From Chytridium lagenaria (taxonomy: Eukaryota > Chytridiomycota > Chytridiomycetes > Chytridiales > Chytridiaceae), in assembly GCA_025449115.1 (NCBI GenBank), contig JAHLKC010000053.1, positions 62,001 through 126,000 on the forward strand: DNA of 64,000 nucleotides. Direction: 5' to 3'. The notes under the pieces are model-generated. The model was given only the letters and a program-made list of their open reading frames with translations, was not told where the DNA came from and did not search any database. Position 1 is the stretch's first letter. Each line of letters starts with the position of its first letter. A program made the position numbers and the translations under genes. Positions 1 through 62,600 of the stretch are shown one piece after another.

Positions 1-3000
1 TGGGAACTGGTGGAAGAAGAGCGCCTCAGACAAGAAGAAGTCTGCAAACACAGCGCGTGCGAGTCCAATTGCCTTCATGGCTATTGTGCGTCAGGCTGAT
101 GCGGAGGCTGGGGAAGCCTTGTCGGTTAAGCTGGAGAAGCGGGATAACCGATGGATTCTGGACTCTGGAGCCACTCACCATATGACCTTCTCGAAGGAAG
201 GCTTGCGGGGTTACCGCGCCGCGAGCAGCCGCGTAAAAACTGCAGAGCACGGCGAAGGAATACACGTGGAGGGAGTAGGAGACTTGACTCTCAGCATCAA
301 GGTCGGTAAAGCCACGCAAACGATCACGCTCAAGAACGTACTCTATGTGCCGGAGCTCACGCGTAATCTCATCTCCCTGGGCGCAGCAGCGTCGCGTTGG
401 CGTTGTTTTGGAGTCATCCAGCGGCAAGTATCGCCTAAGACACGTCGGATCGAACGACGTGACGGCAGAGTTCAAGGTTGAGGACAACCTATTTATCTGG
501 TGCAGCCAGACACCGCAGCAAACACCACGATGTGTGTGAAAAGCCAGTCGCTCAACAGTGCGCAGATTTGGCATCGACGGATGGGTCACATCTCGATGAA
601 GGCGGTAAAGAAGCTTGAAAAATCGGCAACGGGTGTACGCATCACGTTGTATAACGACGACGACGACGTGCTGTGCAAGGGATGCATTGAGGGGAAGCTT
701 ACGCGCTCCTCTCATCCGGAGAGAGTTGAGAAGGACTACAAAGTCCTGGAACGCGTTCACGTGGATTTGGCGGGACCCATGAAGCGGAAGAGCTTGGGAG
801 GGTCGCGTTACTTCATGGTGGTTGTGGACGCATCAACGGGTTACTGCAACACGTACATGCTCAAGGAAAAGAAGCAAGCGTTTCAGTACATCAAGCAGTA
901 CAAGAGAGAGGCCGAGGCACTCACAGGTCGACGGATTGACGCGTTGAGATACTCAGAAGGGAACCCTAAGGATATGAAACGACTTCGAGAAAGGTCGCAT
1001 CTCCTAGAGATCGTTTCAGATAACGCTGGGGGAATTTAAGAACAAGAAGCTGGAGGTATGATGCTTGAAGGAAGGCATCAAGCTCACTCTCACTATGCCC
1101 TACACGCCTCAGCAGAACGGTGTCGCGGAAAGAATGTATCGGTCGCTCATTGAGAAGGCAAAGTGCATGAGTCTTGATGACAAATTCTGGGAAGAGGCTG
1201 TTACATGTGCCACGTACTTTTACAATCGATCTCCTCGTAAGGATGGGATTTCACCTCTTGAAGGCTTCACGGGAAGGAAGCCTAACCTGAAACGCGTTCG
1301 AATCTTCGGTTGCGCATGTTACGCGCACGTCCCAAAAGGAACGACTGAAGAAGTGGAGATATCGTCTTTATGACCCAGTCACGAAGAAAGTAGTGCGCAG
1401 CAAGACTGTTGTGTTTGATGAGTTGAACACTGGAGTGTGGGAAGGACACGACGCAGACATGTCCACCTGGAAGGTACACAGGAAGCTGCTGGACAAGGTG
1501 GGAAGCGATTCAGGGAGTTGGGGGAGCGATGAAGACTCCGACGAGTCATTGAGCTGTGAGGATGATGGAGATAACGCGTCACAGGTCAGTGAAGACAGCG
1601 AAGCGTTGGAGGATGATGTCGAGGATGCCCAGGAAGAGAACGACGCGTCAGAAGAGTTCGAAGACGCACCAACCTCGCCAAGAAGGACCCCTCTACGCGC
1701 TACACGCAGCATTTTACGTCTCCCGGTACCAGCAACACCACCAGCAGAGGAAGGCACTCGTTGTTATTCCCTGAGAGAGAGGAGGCCAGCAAACGCAGAA
1801 TGGTTTAAGGCTCAAACGCCAGGAAAGCGCGCTCCTGCTCCATGTAATCCTGCAGCACACACCGTTACCGTGATGAGTGACGAGGACGTGACAGATCCAG
1901 CAACCGTTGAGGACGCGTTGGGACGCGTCGATTCAGAAGAATGGATGAAGGCTCTCCAGGAGGAGTACCAGTCGTTGCTGGAGCATCAGACGTGGCGTCT
2001 GGTGCCTCGACCAAAGGTAAGCACATCATCAAGAGTGGATGGGTGCTCCGTTACAAAGCAAAAGGAAGACGGCTCCGTGGAAAGGAGAAAGCTCGATTCG
2101 TCGCGAAGGGATATTCGCAGAAAGAAGGCGTGGACTACTTGGAGACTTACGCGCCAGTCATGAAAGGGGCGACCTTTCGGACAGCACCTCGCGGTGGCAG
2201 CTCACGAGGGGATGGTCTTACGCCAATACGACGTCAAGACGGCGTTTCTCAACGGTAATCTTAAGGAGGAGATATACATCGATCAACCCAGAAGGTTTTG
2301 TGATTGCTGGGAAGGAAGACTGGGTTTGTCTTCTCTTGAAGACCTTGTATGGGTTGAAGCAATCACCCTTGGATGGAACGAGGTGTTGGATGAGTTTCTC
2401 ATCTCGATAGGCTTCACACGTTCGCTCTCGGATCCCTGTCTTTACTACCAACGCAACGGCGAGAGGTTATCGTTACTGGTTGTCTATGTTGACGACCTAG
2501 TGCACGCATGTCCTGATCAGGAGAGGCAGACGCGTTTCAAGACGATCTCAAGCGTCGGTTTACGGTCACAAACCAGGGGGAGCCAAGATACGCGGTTGGA
2601 ACCCAAGTTCGCTACAATCAACGCGAGAGGCATGTGCGTATCAAGCAGGAGGGCCTATATCATCTCAATGGTGAAGAAGCTACAAGTGCCAGAAGGAAAT
2701 CTCAAGAAGCTTCCGCTAAAGCCAGGAAACGCGTCTCAGACGCGTTGAAGATAACGAAACTCCATTGGAAGAAGTGGAGGGACTTGCCCAATCGAACCGT
2801 GGTCGGTTCATTGATGTACGCGATGGTTAATTCGCGTCCCGACGTTGCATTTGAAGTTGGAATGCTGGCGCGCTACCAGGCGCGTCCTCGAAACGAGCAC
2901 TGGGAGTGTGCTCGTGATTTAGTCGGGTATTTACAGTTGACGCCGTAGTTTGGGCATAAGTTATTCGCGTCAAGGGAACAAATTGAAGCTTGAAGGATTC

Positions 3001-4367: not shown

Positions 4368-5899
4368 CACCACGATGGGTGTGAAAAGCCAGTCGCTGAG
4401 CAGCGCTCAGATTTGGCATAGACAGATGGGTCACATCTTGATGAAGGCGGTGAAGAAGCTTGAAAAATCGGCAACGGGTGTACGCATCACGTTATACAAC
4501 CACCATGACGACGTACTGTGCAAGAGATGCATTGAGGGGAAGCTTACGCGCTCCTCTCACCCGGAGAGGGTTGAGAAGACCTACAAAGTCCTGGAACGCG
4601 TTCACGTGGACTTGGCAGGACCCATGAAGCGGAAGAGCTTGGGAGGGTCGCGTTACTTCATGGAGGTTGTGGACGCGTCAACGGGTTACTGCAACACATA
4701 CATGCTCAAGAAAAGAAGCAAGCGGTTCAGTACGTCAAGCAGTTTAAGAGAGAGGCCGAGGCACTCACAGGTCGACGGATTGACGCGTTGAGATACTCAG
4801 AAGGGAACCCTGAGGATATGAAACGACTTCGAGAAAGGCCGAATCTCCTAGATATCGTTTCAGATAACGCTGGGGAATTTAAGAACAAGAAGCTGGAGGT
4901 ATGATGCTTGAAGGAAGGCATCAAGCTCACGCTCACTATGCCCTACACGCCTCAGCAGAACGGTGTCGCGGAAAGAATGAATCGGTCGCTCATTGAGAAG
5001 GCCCAATGCATGAGTCTTGACGACAAATTCTCGGAAGAGGCTGTTACGTGTGTCACGTACTGTCAATCTCCTCGTATGGATGGGATTTCACCCCTGGAAG
5101 GCTTCACGGGAAGTAAGGCCTAACTTGAAACCCGTTCAAATCTTTGGTTGCGCATGTTACGCGCACGTCCCAAAGGAACGATAGAAGAAGATGGAGAAGA
5201 ACGCTCGCAAATGCACTGTCTTGGGATACGAGGGGATCAGACTTCGCCTTTATCACCCAGTCACTAAGAGAGTACTGCGCAGCAAGACTGATGTGTCTGA
5301 TTAGTTGAACACTGGAGTGAAGGAAGGACGCGACACAGATTTGTCTACCTGGAAGGTTCACAGGACAAGTGGAACGCGATTTAGGAAGATGGGGGAGCGA
5401 TGAAATCTCCGAGGATTCCGAAGATGAGTCGTTGACCTCTGAGGATGATGGAGATGATGCCTCACAGATCAGTGAAGACAGCAAAGCGTTGGAGAATGAT
5501 GTCGAGGATGCGCAGGAAGAGAATGACGCGCCAACCTCGACAAGAAGGACTCCTCAACGCGCTACACGCAGCGTTTCTTGTCTCCCGGTACCAGCAACAC
5601 CACCAACAGAGCAAGGCACGCGTCGTTATTCCCTGACGGAGAGGAGGCCAGCAAATCCAGAATGATTCGAGGCTCAAGCGCCTGAAAAGCGCCAGCCAAG
5701 CCTGCAGCACACACCGTTATCGTGACAAGTGACGAGGACGTGACACATCCAGCAACCATTGAAGATGTTTTGCGTCGTGTTGATTCAGAAGAATAGTTGA
5801 AGGCGCTTCAGGAGAAGTACCAGTCATTGCTGGAGCATCAGAGGTGGCGTCTGGTGCCTTAACCAAAGGGCAAGCACATCATAAAGAGTGAATGGGTGT
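4368..5899 (+). mobile_element. Second copia copy, forward half (integrase to start of RT)
   Basis: Closely matches window positions 526 to about 2050 of the first copy: GAG-pre-integrase motif IWHRQMGH (about 4410), integrase HVDLAGPM (about 4603), YTPQQNGVAERM (about 4946), then the acidic linker (about 5380-5560). It is more damaged than the first copy, with stops and a short deletion near 5060 where a YFYNR-type stretch is missing. It starts exactly where the antisense half at 5900-7057 stops in element coordinates, so the two halves look like one element split by an inversion. Confidence 0.9.
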
Positions 5900-12931: not shown

Positions 12932-15005
12932 TTAAAGCTCTGAATGGCTCTCAGTTGATCCAGCAAAAGATCCCAAAATGTTCTTCCGGATGCTGAAATC
13001 ATCGAGCTTCTCAACAGTAGTGGTTCCAGATCCTGCAATCTTGGTGAGACGTGCAGTTTCCTTGGCAACATAGCCATCGCCGTCTTTCTGAATCTTCTCC
13101 ATAACCTTGACGTAGTAGTTTGCGTACCTGAAAGAAATATGCAAATAAGTATGATAGACAGAAAAGGAAACAAGAGACTATGGAATACACTTACTTGCTG
13201 CTGTTTTGTGCCGTAACTTCCTTTTTCGCCTCCTCGATAACAGCGGTCCTGTCCGAAGGAGTGGAGAAAAACTTCTGTGCAAGGTTGTCAAGGGTGGCGA
13301 TCTTTCCAGCCTTCATGATGACAAAAAAGGTGTGAGTTTTTAATTGGGATAACGATATGCAATTCCGAAGAAAACACCAAAAAGCAAGCTATTACCTTGG
13401 GGCCGAGTCCACCACCAACAGTACGGTCGGTACCACAGTTCTCGTTCAGGAAGGTGATAAAGTCCTGCTCGGAACGTCCACCAGAGTACTCAACGGGCTC
13501 CTTGCCACCAGCGGGGAAAAACTACGGAAAGTCAAGTTAATCGCGATGATATATTAGGAAGAATAAGGTAGGCGCATGCACTAGTTTTATGGCCTATTTA
13601 AAAAAATGGTATGTTTACCTTGATCGTGGGGTATCCGGAAACGCCATAACGCTCACCGATCTCCTTTGCTTCCGTAGCGTCGAGGTTTGCGACAACACAC
13701 TTAAATTTATGTAAGCTTTCTTACATTTACATCTTAGAAAAACAGAACGTGGCAGATATGGCAAACATGTAGTAAAACTCACCTTTGTTTCGGTCGCAAA
13801 GGCGCGAGCAACTAAGCGCCATGTGAATTTATTCCAAAACGGAGCCGTCAGTATTCAGGAAAAAAAATATGTATTATACACGAGACGGTAAAAGTTAAAC
13901 CTACCCTTCTCGTAGTGGGAGCAAGGTTCTTGCAGTGTCCACACCTGTCATCAGTTTTTAGTATGGTAGCATAAAATCAAAATGAGAAAATATAACGTAC
14001 CAGGGAGCGTAGAACTCAACAAGTGTGTTCTTAGAAGTGTCGCCCTTAACCTCAGTGTCAAAGTTGGTCCCATCAAGAACTTTAACAAAGGTCTGGGCTT
14101 CTTAAGGTTGGCTCGAATACCTTAGTCCATGTTAGTTCAACAGAAGAAAACCGATGTCTTCTCACCAGACTTGTCTTGGATGAACTTAACGAAGGAGTCA
14201 AGGTCTCTACCGCCGTTGTAGTCTTCAGGCTTAGTTGAGCCCTTAGGGAACCTACATTACAAGTCAACCCCGACTCAAATAACCCACTTAGATTCCATCA
14301 CAAAACGCACCATTTCAAAGTGGGGAATCCTTGGATTCCGAACTTGGTTCCAAGCTCCTTGTGGGCGTCAGCATCAACCTTGGCGATGATCAAGTTCTTG
14401 TCCTTAGCGTAGAGATGTCCGAGCTCCTCGTAAATCTGCGAACATTTGGTCAGATGCATTCTTGAGTAAATAAGAAAGTTGAGCTTACGGGAGCGAGACT
14501 CTGTTTTCGTCATCGGAGAAAGGGTTTTCGTTAGAATATGATGACAAAGCATGTACCAGAAAACGCGAGTATTCTGGGTACAAACCTTGCAATGACCACA
14601 CCTAAGTTTAAGGAGTTAGACACTGAGTACAATCTCGTTGATTTCACTTACCACTATGTAAGCACGGAGACAGAAAGTAACAAGAATCGAATGAATGGTT
14701 AATTAACGTAAATGTAACGAAGCAATAGCGGGAACTCGCAATGAATCCTATTCAAATTACCGGGGCATAGAATTCCACAAGCGCATGCTTTGACCCGTCG
14801 ATGAACTAAATAAGAGGAAGGTCAGTCTTCTCTTGTGCAGCTCTTTGCATCAACTACTTCAGCTTCGCACCTGGCCAAAGTTCTTGGGGGTGAGGGTAAC
14901 GACGTCGCTGTCGTGATCATCATGAGAGTGCCCATGGTGACCGTGGTCGCCGTGTGCAAAGGCAAGAGCGACGAATCCAAAGACCACAGCAAAGACTGCT
15001 CGCAT
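12932..15005 (-). CDS. Protein disulfide isomerase, two thioredoxin domains plus ERp29-type C-terminal domain
   Basis: ER foldase that forms and reshuffles disulfides. The ATG at 15005 opens a signal peptide (MRAVFAVVFGFVALAFA) followed by a His/Asp-rich stretch. Two thioredoxin domains each carry WCGHCK; the C-terminal part fits the helical ERp29 domain; the last residues HSEL resemble an HDEL-type ER-retention signal. The order matches fungal ERp38/TigA and plant PDI-D. Exons, 5' to 3': 15005-14871, 14805-14761, 14653-14652 (2 bases), 14601-14586, 14500-14489 (12 bases), 14435-14311, 14251-14166, 14100-14001, 13944 to 13905 or 13901, 13811-13783, 13699-13619, 13521-13396, 13310-13195, 13137-12932. 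In the second domain a base seems missing near 13911 (expected PTYEK); the frame also closes if a donor 4 bases downstream is used. An upstream in-frame ATG exists at 15059, but the signal peptide favours 15005. Confidence 0.93.
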
Positions 15006-15477: not shown

Positions 15478-17593
15478 ATGGCCTCAAACGTCACTGTAGA
15501 GCTGGAGGGCGAGCCTCTAAAGAAGGTCTCCCTGAAGACCACTCCTGCAATGTCCCTTAAGTCTATCGTCGATGCGGCATGCACAAAGCTCAAGCTTCCC
15601 AGTCCAGACTCTTTCTCACTTAAATATCAACGCAACATGCTCGACCTTTCCCTCTCTGTCCGATTTGCAAACTTACCAGCCGGCGCAAAGTTGTTCCTCG
15701 TGAAGGGAAGAACTCCTGGTGGTGGTGGGCTGATGGTGCTCCTCTTAGGGTACCCGAGGTGGATATTGCCCTGCAGGTGGAGGAGGGTGGCCGATATGTT
15801 GGAAAGTTTAAGGTCACGTCGTCGTTGTGGATATTCTCAAATTCTTTGAGGATAGGGAAAAGTGCGTGTACCTTTCCATCACTTAATTCGATCTTTATTC
15901 TCCTTCAATGCAAGTGTGCGCTTGAGCGTATCCCATTTAACCGTTTATGAGCACAGAGTCAACCTAACGATGAAAACCGCACCAGCTCCAGGTGCAACCT
16001 CGCCGTTCAAGATCGGAAAACCCAAGCCTGACATCTTCCTCATGCCCGCAGTTGTACTCATGAACAAAGAGGTGGGGAAGGGGACATTTCACGTTTGCAT
16101 GGCGACTTTGACTCAACAAAACCTTAGGTATCCACCATTGAAAGTTTAAGGAGCACCACGTTAAAGGATACGGGTTTACTCACTGGGAATTGCTGTCATG
16201 CGTCTTTTGTACCGCCCCACTGAAAAAAACTCTTGCCGATATGGAAGAACTGTTAAAGGAAGCTCCCAAATCGGCTACGCCAACCCCTGAAGTTCCCCGC
16301 GCCGACCCCACAACCTCCCAAACCAGGTTCGACGATGCTGATAGAATGACAGGAGCTCACCGTTTGGCTTTTGTATAGAACCCGTTGATAAGGAGCCTGA
16401 ACCATCGAAGTCCATCGCGCCCGCGATCCAGACCCCTGCCGTGGTTGCCCCAAAGGTAGTTTCTGCCGCCTTAAGCTCGGCGCCCGTCACTTTGAAAGAA
16501 GATATAACTTCGCCTGTCGAAGAGGTGTGCATTTGTGACTTTTTTTTACTGGCTTTAATTTGTATTCTTACGAATAGGCTGACCGCGGTGTTAAACTCTT
16601 TCGTCCCACGGCAAATGATATCGGACCTCAATCAAGTAAGATATATTACTTGATCAGGACTTCTTGTTTGACATGAAATAATTGACATAATGCCTTTTTT
16701 GTTGTAGTTGAACTACCCGATTCATTCTTTGAGCTGACGCCAAATGAATTGAAAATGATGATAAAGCTGCACAACTCTCGCTCAAAGGCACTCGAGGACG
16801 CGCCATTGATGACAAAGGCAATGAGGGACCGGGAAGAGCAATTGAGAAAGTCAAAATATCCTAAGGTTGGGAATTTATCAATGTCTTCATGGTATATTAA
16901 CCCTTTGATGATGCAGACCATGATTCGTGTAAAGTTTCCGAATAGACTTGTTCTTCAGGCAACATTTCTTTCAGACGAAACAAGTAAACTTGTATAAGTT
17001 CATTGATGATACTGACGTAAAATAGTTGGTGCTCTTTACGAATTTGTTCGGAGCTCCTTAAGAAATCCTTCAAGTAAATTCACCCCTCTACACGACTCCT
17101 CCACTCGAAAACCTTAAAGATCTAAAGCAAACCATGTGGACTGGAAAGTTGGCACCGGCTAGTTTGGTATACCTTCGATGGGAAGAAGACGAAGCTGGTT
17201 AGTCTAGCTTACCATTTTATGCTACTGTTTGGCTGATGAACCACAGGCGAACCTTTTCTCAAGGACGAGTTGCTGGATAAATCTGAGGAAATACCAAAAG
17301 TGGATATTGACATAAGCATGGTGGAGCAGGCGCTTTGGACCATGAAGGGGGATACCAAGATGGGTGAGGTACCTGTCGAAGCCTCATCGAAGGTGGTGAG
17401 TAATAGGAACGATATAATTGCTGGAGGTTCGATGTCGTCGTCGTATAGCGCCGAGAGAGAGCCAGCTCCAAAAAAATTGCCCAAGGTAAACATGGATGTT
17501 ATAATACTTCGCTATATATTTCTTTTTTTATTGCTCTTAATGGGTTAATCTGTTCTATCTATGCAGTGGTTTAAAATCGGCAAGAAGAACTGA
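15478..17593 (+). CDS. ASPSCR1: TUG/ASPL-like UBX-domain protein (Cdc48/p97 cofactor), frame-slipped
   Basis: Adaptor of the AAA ATPase Cdc48/p97. The start MASNVTVEL leads into a TUG-UBL1 ubiquitin-like domain. A second UBL-like part (about 15960-16220), the block FELTPNELKMMI (about 16731) and ALEDAPLMTKAMR (about 16790), then a UBX-like fold with MIRVKFPNRLVLQ (about 16919), and the terminal PKWFKIGKKN are the TUG family order. Exons: 15478-15861, 15915-16071, 16128-16524, 16578-16635, 16708-16865, 16917-16983, 17026-17197, 17247-17485, 17567-17593. As read, the frame slips about five times, near 15730, 15829, 16216, 16370 and 17082, almost all at short homopolymers; restoring one base at each brings back the family sequence. 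I read this as sequencing error, though a pseudogene is possible. Confidence 0.85.
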
Positions 17594-59769: not shown

Positions 59770-61665
59770 ATGGGTATCGCTAAAAAATTCCGCGCCATCA
59801 TTCTCATCGGCGGCATCATCGCCGTCCTCGCCGCTGTCGTCGTCGTCGTCGGCGTGTTCAACGGAAAAGAGGTACCTCCCCAGTATCTTCTTTTTTCCCT
59901 TTCGCTAAAATCCGTCAAAAAAAAAAGGGTCAACGTAAAAAAGGCCTCGAATTCGATTCCCTCGAAGTCAACACTGATTTCCCCACATCCTCGCAACAGT
60001 TCAACAACAACGACATTGAAGCGGTCCTCACCGAAAAGGGGTTCATTGGTGAATTCTACAAAAACTGCGCATCGTACAATTACGTGATTGTGGAAGCCAA
60101 GATCACAAATCTGGATCTCGTCAATGGGATTTATAAGATTAAATTGGATTTCAGCCCGTGTGGGGATTTCATTGATCGGTCAAAGGTGTCGGTTGGGAAA
60201 AGTCTTGTGTTGGGGATGCCGTTGAGAATTAGTTTTGGTGGGTTTGGAGGTGTGAGGATGTATTGCTAAGCCCCCTTTTCCTTAGATAACAAGATTTATA
60301 ACTTTTCGGCGGGGACGCCGATGGCGTCGCAAGATTTCCAGACAACGTTTGATGCTGGAGGTACGTTATTTATTTCCCCTCAACTAAATATTCTCTTTTG
60401 CATCGATACCGTTTCCACCATTTATTTTTTCTCCTTTGCTTCCCAGTCTTTTTACTATACATTCTTTGCTCGCGTTTCCATCATTTTTATTTTTTCGCAC
60501 TCACTCTTTGCTTCCTTTGATACCATAACATCTACCTTTCCTCTTTTTCGTTGTAGCCCCTTTCTTCCACATCCTTTCACAAAACCCTCCCATTCCACTT
60601 TTCTTACCCCAAATAACCTTTTTTTTTCACCATCCTATCCCATACGGAAAAAAGACATCAACAATTACCCCTTTGACAAATACACTGCCGAGGATCTTTA
60701 CACTGAAGGCACCTACAATGATCCTAACTCCTCAAATCGTACAACCCCCGTCCCCATCGCCCTCTACTTTAACGGCGCGCTCCTAACGTAAGCTCACCCA
60801 CCCCTCCTATTCAATCCATACAACACACCACCTCTATCTCCCCCTCCCCTATTCAAAGTTCCCCCTTCTCCCTACCCATAAAACCCTCCCCCCATCCATC
60901 CATTCCAACTCATTCCCTAAAAACAACCCACCAGCTACTCCGTCTCAGTCACCACCTCAAAGACGAATCCACCACGAACCCCCCAAAAGGCGACATCATC
61001 CGTCTCGATTTCAACGTCTCAAGATCCCTCACCACCATCTTCTTCTCTACTCTCGTCATGGTGATCATGTGGGTGTTGAGTTTGTTGGCGTTCACATTGG
61101 CCGTCACGTTGTGGATGAGGGGGAGGAAAGTGGAACCCCCGACTATTGCGTTTTCCATCGCGTTGATGTGAGTGGGTACTTTTTTTCTTTTTTCGCTTGG
61201 CTTTTGGGATTGGCGTGAGGGAGGTTGTTTTTCTTTCTTTTCTCTCGTGTCGGATTTCTGGGGTTTTGTCGTGAGGGGGAGTGTGTGTGTGTGCGTTTGA
61301 CTAACGAGCCGTGTAGTTTCGCTTTACCCGGCATTCGGAACACTCAACCCGGAACACCACCTATCGGATGTACGGCAGACGCCGTATCCTTCTTTTGGGC
61401 AATGTCTCTCAGCGCCGCAACAGGTAACCCCACTTCCCCTCCAAAAAAACATCCCAATATTTTTTTCGCTCACCCTTTTTTTTTTTCTTAAGCCGCATGT
61501 CTCATGATCAACTATATCCTGAAATACAACTTCGATTACGACGCTGTCCCTGCTCCGATGAAACAGGAATCGAACGTTAAGACGACGACTGGGAAGGATT
61601 TGGAGGGTGGTGTTGTGGATGTGCCGTTGAGTGTTGTCGAAACTTCGAGTAAGACTGTTGCGTGA
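59770..61665 (+). CDS. DUF4436 family multi-pass membrane protein
   Basis: Fungal membrane protein family of unknown role. Seven in-frame exons: 59770-59871, 59928-60249, 60286-60360, 60655-60787, 60935-61167, 61317-61423, 61493-61665. Residues 8-30 form a membrane segment (AIILIGGIIAVLAAVVVVVG). The outer domain includes LEFDSLEVNTDF, INNYPFDKYTAEDLYTEGTY and VPIALYFNGALL. Three more membrane segments follow: IFFSTLVMVIMWVLSLLAFT, IAFSIALIFALPGIRNTQPG with the family motif, and VSFFWAMSLSAATAACLMIN. The cytoplasmic tail ends SSKTVA. The last exon's 3' end is partly duplicated downstream. The frame is clean despite long homopolymers in the introns. Confidence 0.9.
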
Positions 61666-61705
61666 ATGCGGAGGGATCGTTTCCCAATATATTTTTTTCA
61701 TCGAG

Positions 61706-62600
61706 TTTTAACATGGGGATCTCATTCAAATCCCATGGATCCATTTTCCCTGTTTTTTTTTTTTATTCTTTACTTTTCGTTTCCATGGTTCCCTTGCGCA
61801 ACGACACGGTGTTTTCTTTCCGATTTTCCGTCAAGTCGTTGCGCTTACAAAAATCACGCTTTAAGAGTTTTAACATGGGGACGTTGAGTGTTGTCGAAAC
61901 TTCGAGTAAGACTGTTGCGTGAATGCGGAGGGATCGTTTCCCAATATATTTTTTTTCATCGTGTTTTAACATGGGGACCTCATTCAAATCCCATGGATCC
62001 ATTTTCCCTGTTTTTTTTTTATTCTTTACTTTTCGTTTCCATGGTTCCCTTGCGCAACGACACGGTGTTTTCTTTCCGATTTTCGATCAAGTCGTTGCGC
62101 TTACAAAAATCACGCTTTAAGAGTTTTAACATGGGGATCTCATTCAAATCCCATGGATCCATTTTCCCTGTTTTTTTTATTTCTTTACTTTTCGTTTCCT
62201 TGGTTCCCTTGCGCAACGAAACGGTGTTTTCTTTCCGATTTTCGATCAAGTCGTTGCGCTTACAAAAATCACACTTTAAGAGTTTTAACATGGGGATCTC
62301 ATTCAAATCCCATGGATCCATTTCACCCGTGTTTTTTTTATTTCTTTACTTTTCGTTTCCATGGTTCCCTTGCGCAACGACACGGTGTTTTCTTTCCGAT
62401 TTTCAATCAAGTCGTTGCGCTTACAAAATCACGTTTTAAGAGTTTTTAACATGGGGATCTCATTCAAATCCCATGGATCCATTTCACCTTTTTTTTTTTA
62501 TTCTTTCCTTTTCGTTTCCATGGTTCTCTTGCGCAACGACACCGTGTTTTCTTTCCGATTACCGATCCGCATACAAAAAACACGTTTTATAACACATCAA
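61706..62600 (+). repeat. Tandem array of about 160-base units after the DUF4436 gene
   Basis: Each unit begins near GTTTTAACATGGGGATCTC and runs through CATTCAAATCCCATGGATCC, a T-rich tract, TTCGTTTCCATGGTTCCCTT, GCGCAACGACACGGTGTTTT and CAAGTCGTTGCGCTTACAAA. The ATGGGG of successive units lies at 61714, 61875, 61971, 62131, 62290 and 62451. The unit at 61875 is interrupted after 10 bases by a copy of the gene's last-exon end. Confidence 0.95.
61881..61960 (+). repeat. Duplicated end of the DUF4436 last exon
   Basis: From GTTGAGTGTTGTCGAAACTT through the TGA stop and GAATGCGGAGGGATCG, this repeats 61626-61700 almost exactly. It shows that a roughly 254-base segment spanning the stop codon and the first array unit was duplicated. 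Confidence 0.92.

What the first reader, a model, noticed from the sequence alone, without database searches (positions are those of the whole stretch)
14586..14805. A 2-base micro-exon at the active site of a PDI gene
Exon 14805-14761 ends in CCG (the Pro before WCGHC) and the next clear exon (14601-14586) starts G TGT GGT CAT TGC, so the Trp codon needs TG from somewhere. Between them sits TACATAG, then TG (14653-14652), then a perfect GTAAGT donor. Using that TG as an exon gives WCGHCK exactly. In the second thioredoxin domain the same Trp codon is also split TG|G (intron 14000-13945), which shows the downstream intron is old and the upstream one landed two bases from it. Exons of 16 and 12 bases follow, so three tiny exons build one catalytic site. 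Exons this small are rarely documented and strain exon-definition models.
Basis: partly seen in the sequence, partly recalled or inferred. Interest (0 to 1): 0.88.

Follow-up and report, generated by a model that had tools for sequence, protein, structure and literature searches.

The report
Two-base exon in a chytrid PDI
A protein-folding gene of the chytrid fungus Chytridium lagenaria appears to need an exon only two letters long to spell its first catalytic site, a rare extreme of gene splicing with known precedents in plants and in Fusarium.

Summary
A two-domain PDI (PDIA6/P5 type: two thioredoxin domains plus ERp29C) lies on the minus strand, 15005-12932, in contig C53. The Trp of its first WCGHC needs TG from 14653-14652, framed as AG|TG|GTAAGT. 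Of 1915 joins of one to three GT/GC-AG introns (minimum 30 nt), exactly one spells FYAPWCGHCK, and every listed join with WCGHCK uses this TG. Shuffles of the intron give such a site with a GTRAGT donor in 1 of 20000. Skipping TG, or keeping the intron after it, brings a stop. The deposited protein contains the Trp, so its model must already use this exon (inferred).

Among the 120 listed relatives, 11 of 29 chytrid models lack WCGHC in domain 1, against 1 of 29 in domain 2 and 0 of 91 other proteins in either. Tiny exons here are therefore probably shared by relatives.

Best reading: a real 2-nt exon, spliced stepwise. No RNA or relatives' DNA was available, and the assembly shows frameshifts in three PDI genes. 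One-nt exons are already published: new member of a known kind.

The parts
14871..15005 (-). Exon 1 (135 nt), start codon and N-terminal region
14761..14805 (-). Exon 2 (45 nt), ends ...TTC TAT GCC CCG (FYAP)
14654..14760 (-). Intron 2 (107 nt), GTAATT...TTACATAG, phase 0, between Pro and Trp
14652..14653 (-). 2-nt micro-exon TG, first two bases of the Trp codon of the first WCGHC
   Evidence: unique solution; chance estimate
14602..14651 (-). Intron 3 (50 nt), GTAAGT...CTTAG, phase 2, splits the Trp codon TG|G
14586..14601 (-). Exon 4 (16 nt), G TGT GGT CAT TGC AAG, (W)CGHCK
14489..14500 (-). Exon 5 (12 nt), AGTCTCGCTCCC, SLAP; absent from the deposited protein P0121
14311..14435 (-). Exon 6 (125 nt), most of the rest of thioredoxin domain 1
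14121..14165 (-). Intron 7 (45 nt) as re-read; the acceptor at 14101 used is dropped because relatives keep the SGIRANLKKP-like stretch
   Evidence: relatives P0122 and P0123
14001..14120 (-). Exon 8 (120 nt) as re-read, with an apparent frameshift after SGIRANLKKP; ends ...GCT CCC TG before the second active site
13945..14000 (-). Intron 8 (56 nt), splits the Trp codon TG|G of the second WCGHC
13905..13944 (-). Exon 9 (40 nt), starts G TGT GGA CAC TGC AAG, with an apparent frameshift after NLAP
12932..13127 (-). Exon 14, last coding exon (end of the ERp29C part)

Best explanation
The gene carries a genuine, obligatory 2-nt exon (TG, 14653-14652) between a 107-nt and a 50-nt canonical intron. 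It supplies two of the three bases of the Trp of the first PDI catalytic motif. The G of the upstream acceptor AG is also position -3 of the downstream donor, so the two splice sites overlap and should not be occupied at once (the overlap is shown by sequence; the consequence is inferred). The two introns are therefore removed one after the other, each recognised across itself (intron definition; inferred). One order joins CCG to TG first and keeps a usable donor CCGTG|GTAAGT. The other removes the 50-nt intron first and leaves an 18-nt exon, TGGTGTGGTCATTGCAAG. Which order is used is not known. Failure of either step gives an early stop, so mis-spliced mRNA would make no full-length enzyme. 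Similar tiny exons at this active site are probably shared by related chytrids and are often missed in annotation.
For: A single join gives FYAPWCGHCK among 1915 combinations. The site with its donor arises in 1 of 20000 shuffles. All 13 introns of the hand-built 14-exon model are GT-AG. Skipping TG gives FYAPVWSLQ... and a stop; keeping intron 3 gives FYAPW and then a stop. The deposited C. lagenaria protein P0121, from a contig of the same length as C53 (236384), reads FYAPWCGHCK, which needs this exon. Relatives' models fail at this spot: four lack just WCGHCK (18 nt = 2+16) and one lacks WCGHCK plus the following four residues (30 nt = 2+16+12). Overall 11 of 29 chytrid models lack the domain 1 motif, against 1 of 29 for domain 2 and 0 of 91 other proteins for either. 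In the Podochytrium model the codon before CGHC is Leu, not Trp, and Val (GTN) follows FYAP directly, which fits introns on both sides of TG. In the same genome, the C13 PDI splits the Trp codon TG|G with a 22-nt exon after it, and the C7 PDI has a 21-nt exon around WCGHCK.
Against: No transcript reads were available. Three PDI genes of the assembly show apparent frameshifts (two in this gene, two in C7, two in C13), so a sequence error near the exon end cannot be fully excluded. The TG acceptor scores only averagely. Relatives' evidence is from protein models, not DNA, shares ancestry and probably annotators, and a missing 18 nt could be one 18-nt exon rather than 2+16. The Siphonaria model P0141 looks as if TGG is contiguous there. 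The C19 PDI-like domain has a contiguous Trp codon with no intron at the motif.
Confidence: 0.88

Rival explanations
1. Assembly error: two bases are missing at the end of exon 2, the true gene has one 159-nt intron at TG|G as in domain 2, and AG-TG-GTAAGT in the intron is chance.
For: Apparent frameshifts are seen in all three PDI genes that I read across several exons. Domain 2 and the C13 PDI have a single intron at TG|G, and the C13 intron is 163 nt, close to 159.
Against: It needs two adjacent lost bases at the one critical place, whereas the six frameshifts seen all fit single-base changes (by frame alone, one base lost cannot be told from two gained). It also needs a chance AG-TG-GTRAGT with proper intron lengths (1 of 20000 shuffles). 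Relatives' models that lose exactly WCGHCK, or continue with GTN straight after FYAP, point to a real intron after the Pro codon.
Confidence: 0.07
2. Non-functional gene copy: the reading frame is lost and the TG site has no meaning.
For: Apparent frameshifts in exon 8 after SGIRANLKKP and in exon 9 after NLAP.
Against: It is the only copy found by DNA search. The spliced protein, with X at the exon 9 break, matches the relative P0122 over 100% of its length at 69% identity. Breaks of the same kind are found in two other PDI genes, which points to the assembly.
Confidence: 0.03
3. Different splicing route: a recursive splice point or nested twin intron (stwintron) in which nothing is kept, with the Trp codon made by a non-canonical site.
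For: Abutting acceptor and donor resemble recursive splice points and stwintrons (papers).
Against: With nothing kept the frame is lost. No join of up to three GT/GC-AG introns gives FYAPWCGHCK without the TG.
Confidence: 0.02

Closest known systems
1-nt exon of Fusarium CYP621A (PMC12940212, 2026; abstract, introduction, discussion and passages read)
   Same: Fungal gene; ultra-small exon needed for frame inside a conserved motif; found by comparison of relatives; canonical sites around it
   Different: 1 nt and not 2; supported there by RNA reads; a P450; no neighbouring 16- and 12-nt exons described in what I read
1-nt exons of plant APC11 and VPS55 (PMC4674806 and PMC8831610, passages read)
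   Same: Ultra-small exon missed by annotation, conserved in relatives; GTRAGT donor conserved for VPS55; intron definition combined with recursive splicing proposed for APC11
   Different: Plants; 1 nt; experimentally confirmed
2-5 bp internal micro-exons of Arabidopsis, Drosophila and human (Volfovsky 2003, as cited in PMC12940212; the paper itself was not held)
   Same: Same size class
   Different: Other organisms; not seen by me
Fungal stwintrons (abstract starts, passages)
   Same: Two introns that must be removed in order at one place in a fungal gene
   Different: In a stwintron one intron interrupts a splice element of the other and nothing is kept; here TG is kept in the mRNA
Recursive splice exons (abstract starts; passages)
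   Same: An acceptor abuts a donor, so splicing must be stepwise
   Different: Those described there subdivide long introns; here the exon is coding and the introns are short

Membership tests
Ultra-small internal coding exon (1-5 nt) | Canonical acceptor and donor on either side at 1-5 nt distance | tested here: met
   AG|TG|GTAAGT at 14655-14646
Ultra-small internal coding exon (1-5 nt) | Its bases are required for frame and a conserved motif | tested here: met
   Only 1 of 1915 joins gives FYAPWCGHCK; skipping gives a stop
Ultra-small internal coding exon (1-5 nt) | Conserved in relatives | tested here: inconclusive
Ultra-small internal coding exon (1-5 nt) | Present in mature mRNA | not testable with these tools
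   No RNA data; the deposited model P0121 includes the Trp
PDIA6/P5-type protein disulfide isomerase | Two thioredoxin domains with WCGHC plus an ERp29 C-terminal domain | tested here: met
   PF00085 in two stretches, PF07749; several of the listed matches are named PDI A6
Stwintron (spliceosomal twin intron) | Internal intron interrupts a splice element of an outer intron, nothing kept | tested here: not met
   TG must be kept for frame and Trp
Recursive splice site with zero-length exon | AG directly followed by GT | tested here: not met
   Two bases lie between AG and GT

The most novel reading that the evidence does not exclude
The 2-nt exon, with its 16- and 12-nt neighbours, is an ancient feature of the PDIA6 gene in Chytridiales and perhaps more widely in Chytridiomycota. 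It has been held through many genera at a catalytic motif, is spliced by obligatory ordered removal of its two introns, and may act as a splicing checkpoint on the amount of PDI, since every mis-step tested gives an early stop.
Probability: 0.3. Interest if true: 0.68.

Novelty: new member of a known kind. Interest (0 to 1): 0.47.

Why it matters
It would extend the shortest-exon class to an early-branching fungal lineage and place such an exon at an enzyme's catalytic motif. It would also explain why several public chytrid PDI models lack their first active site. Because the splice sites on either side overlap, the locus is a clean test of stepwise splicing under intron definition.

Tried and rejected
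Exon 8: I used the acceptor at 14101, which removed a frameshift (SEAQTFVKVL). On re-checking, relatives P0122 and P0123 keep SG(I/L)(K/R)AN(I)KKPQTFVKVL, so the acceptor at 14121 and a frameshift are the better reading. Note 1 and the query still carry the dropped version. RNA folding of 14805-14586 showed nothing unusual (z 0.50). The thioredoxin loci L004-L006 and L008 are WCGPC types with a contiguous Trp codon and say nothing about this intron. A scan of prokaryote contigs for stray chytrid DNA gave 26 loci, all with bacterial record titles, none used. A splice-site matrix from only 11 introns of this gene is small and ranks acceptors poorly. Phrase searches for a 2-nt exon gave 1 and 2 papers; one was opened and is a figure legend on sequence logos, the other two were judged unrelated by title. 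Passages on thioredoxin and PDI intron positions named no Trp-codon intron.

I considered and set aside a sequence error, a dead gene copy and a stwintron (see rivals). Volfovsky 2003 was not held, so I rely on how PMC12940212 cites it.

Full report
What it is. I built the gene model by hand. The minus-strand gene at 15005-12932 has 14 coding exons; all 13 introns are GT-AG and 45-107 nt long. Its product is a two-domain protein disulfide isomerase with an ERp29 C-terminal domain, i.e. PDIA6/P5 type. The best database match, P0121, is a Chytridium lagenaria protein identical to this one apart from missing pieces and a few residues at the exon 9 break. P0121 comes from a contig of 236384 bases, the length of C53, which holds the window. 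So the window is very probably the public C. lagenaria assembly.

The 2-base exon. Exon 2 ends in CCG (FYAP) and exon 4 starts G TGT GGT CAT TGC AAG. The 159 nt between them hold one AG-NN-GT, which is AG-TG-GTAAGT at 14655-14646. I listed all joins of one, two or three GT/GC-AG introns of at least 30 nt between 14805 and 14586: 116 + 823 + 976 = 1915. Only one gives FYAPWCGHCK, and all 19 open joins that end in WCGHCK use this TG. Leaving TG out gives FYAPVWSLQ... and an early stop; keeping intron 3 gives FYAPW and a stop.

Chance. AGTGGT occurs 25 times in both strands of the window, 0.031 per 159 nt, and AGTGGTRAGT once, here. In 20000 dinucleotide shuffles of the intron, 404 had any AGTGGT, 214 had one leaving at least 40 nt on each side, and 1 of these had a GTRAGT donor. 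With a matrix from the 11 other introns, the TG donor scores 7.1 (155 of 7287 GTs in the window score as high). The acceptor is ordinary: 1.4, within the range -4.4 to 7.4 of the other acceptors, and 2400 of 7446 AGs score as high (one search gave 1.2 and 2511 with the older intron 7). The acceptor therefore adds little.

The deposited model. P0121 reads FYAPWCGHCK-IYEEL. By the Trp can only come from the TG, so the public model must already contain this exon (inferred; I did not see the record's exon table). The same model lacks the 12-nt exon (SLAP), the first part of exon 8 and all of exon 10, so it looks like a computed prediction rather than one guided by full-length RNA.

Relatives. I aligned the 120 proteins listed (of 7985 hits) and read domain 1. 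Counted by script, WC[GT]HC is missing from domain 1 in 11 of 29 chytrid models and from domain 2 in 1 of 29. In the other 91 proteins (35 of them metagenome proteins without an organism, which could include chytrids) it is missing from neither. I assigned organisms by hand from the names; the 29 include two Monoblepharidomycetes. The losses are informative. P0122 (Phlyctochytrium planicorne), P0128, P0130 and P0138 lack exactly WCGHCK, 18 nt = 2+16. P0123 (P. bullatum) lacks 30 nt = 2+16+12. P0127 (Podochytrium) and P0137 (Zopfochytrium) continue with Val (GTN) straight after FYAP, as does P0242, as if an intron were read through. In P0127 the codon before CGHC is Leu. P0216 and P0231 begin at or just before CGHC without Trp. 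P0173 and P0175 have lost the motif in other ways. Against a shared TG exon, P0141 (Siphonaria) reads ...LLAQWCGHC, which looks like CAG|TGG TGT with no split Trp codon. And 18 of the 29 chytrid models have the motif, so a missing or unreadable exon is far from universal. These models share ancestry and probably annotators, so the count is not 11 independent events. The further hits were not added to the count.

Other PDI genes in the genome. A genome-wide pattern search for CGHCK gave 18 sites, against 3 for the control pattern. By eye, 6 of the 18 are PDI-type domains (C7 twice, C13, C19, C53 twice); the rest look unrelated, several resembling zinc knuckles of mobile elements, and one on C10 was left unresolved. 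Of the 6 domains, 3 split the Trp codon TG|G: both here and C13, where a 163-nt intron is followed by a 22-nt exon. The C7 PDI splits the preceding Pro codon in both domains, and its first active site lies on a 21-nt exon. C19 has no intron at the motif. So the TG|G position recurs, which supports but does not prove its age. Which of the two introns around TG came first is not settled. Other thioredoxin hits (on C1, C10, C14, C15 and C75) were not studied.

Sequence quality. This gene shows two apparent frameshifts: in exon 8 after SGIRANLKKP and in exon 9 after NLAP. The C7 and C13 PDIs show two each. All six fit single-base changes. Breaks of one kind in three genes point to assembly errors rather than a dead gene. 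They also keep alive the rival that two bases are missing at the end of exon 2. That rival needs a two-base loss at the one critical place and a chance splice-ready TG, and it does not explain the relatives' models.

How it would work. The G at 14654 is both the last base of the acceptor and position -3 of the donor, so the two sites overlap. They should not be usable together, and the introns must then be taken out one after the other. For the Arabidopsis 1-nt exon the authors proposed intron definition combined with recursive splicing for a like reason (PMC4674806, passages). Either order leaves well-formed sites; the order is unknown. No unusual RNA structure was found.

Known background. 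A 1-nt exon in Fusarium CYP621A with RNA support is described as the first fungal case (PMC12940212; abstract, introduction, discussion). Plants have conserved 1-nt exons in APC11 and VPS55, also missed by annotation (PMC8831610, passages). PMC12940212 states that 2-5 bp exons were found in Arabidopsis, Drosophila and human, and PMC5639578 mentions 3-nt exons in a fungal lipS gene (passage). Eight searches of the open paper library listed no paper on a 2-nt exon in a PDI or a chytrid. Only part of the matches was listed in four of them (30 of 731, 30 of 67, 15 of 148 and 15 of 137 papers), and subscription journals are mostly not covered.

Verdict. A real 2-nt exon is by far the best reading (0.88). 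It is a new member of a known kind, made more interesting by its place at a catalytic motif, the 16- and 12-nt exons beside it, and the hint of conservation across chytrids.

Noticed in passing
window 14120-14001 and 13944-13905 (exons 8 and 9); also L010 and L013: Apparent frameshifts, all fitting single-base changes, in three PDI genes of this assembly (2 + 2 + 2), which suggests frequent single-base errors; other gene models in this genome may be affected.
   Followed up: partly
window 14500-14489, 14120-14001 and 13811-13783: The deposited protein P0121 omits the 12-nt exon, the first part of exon 8 and the 29-nt exon 10, so the public model of this gene needs correction even apart from the TG exon.
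   Followed up: yes
L010 (C7:381123 region) and L013 (C13:355404 region): Two other PDI genes have 21- and 22-nt exons that carry the CGHCK part of the active site, with introns at several different positions around the same motif: the active site looks like an intron hotspot in this genome.
   Followed up: partly
window 61625-62567: Long tandem repeats with periods of about 159 and 256 bp and 93-97% matches, with open frames running through part of them.
   Followed up: no
window 77-2748 and 4375-5484: Copia-type retrotransposon remains: pol beta-barrel, gag-pre-integrase and RVT_2 domains in the first stretch, and a second similar stretch by ORF resemblance.
   Followed up: no
window 15481-15849: Divergent neighbour on the plus strand starts a TUG ubiquitin-like domain protein (PF11470) about 0.5 kb from the PDI start codon.
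   Followed up: no
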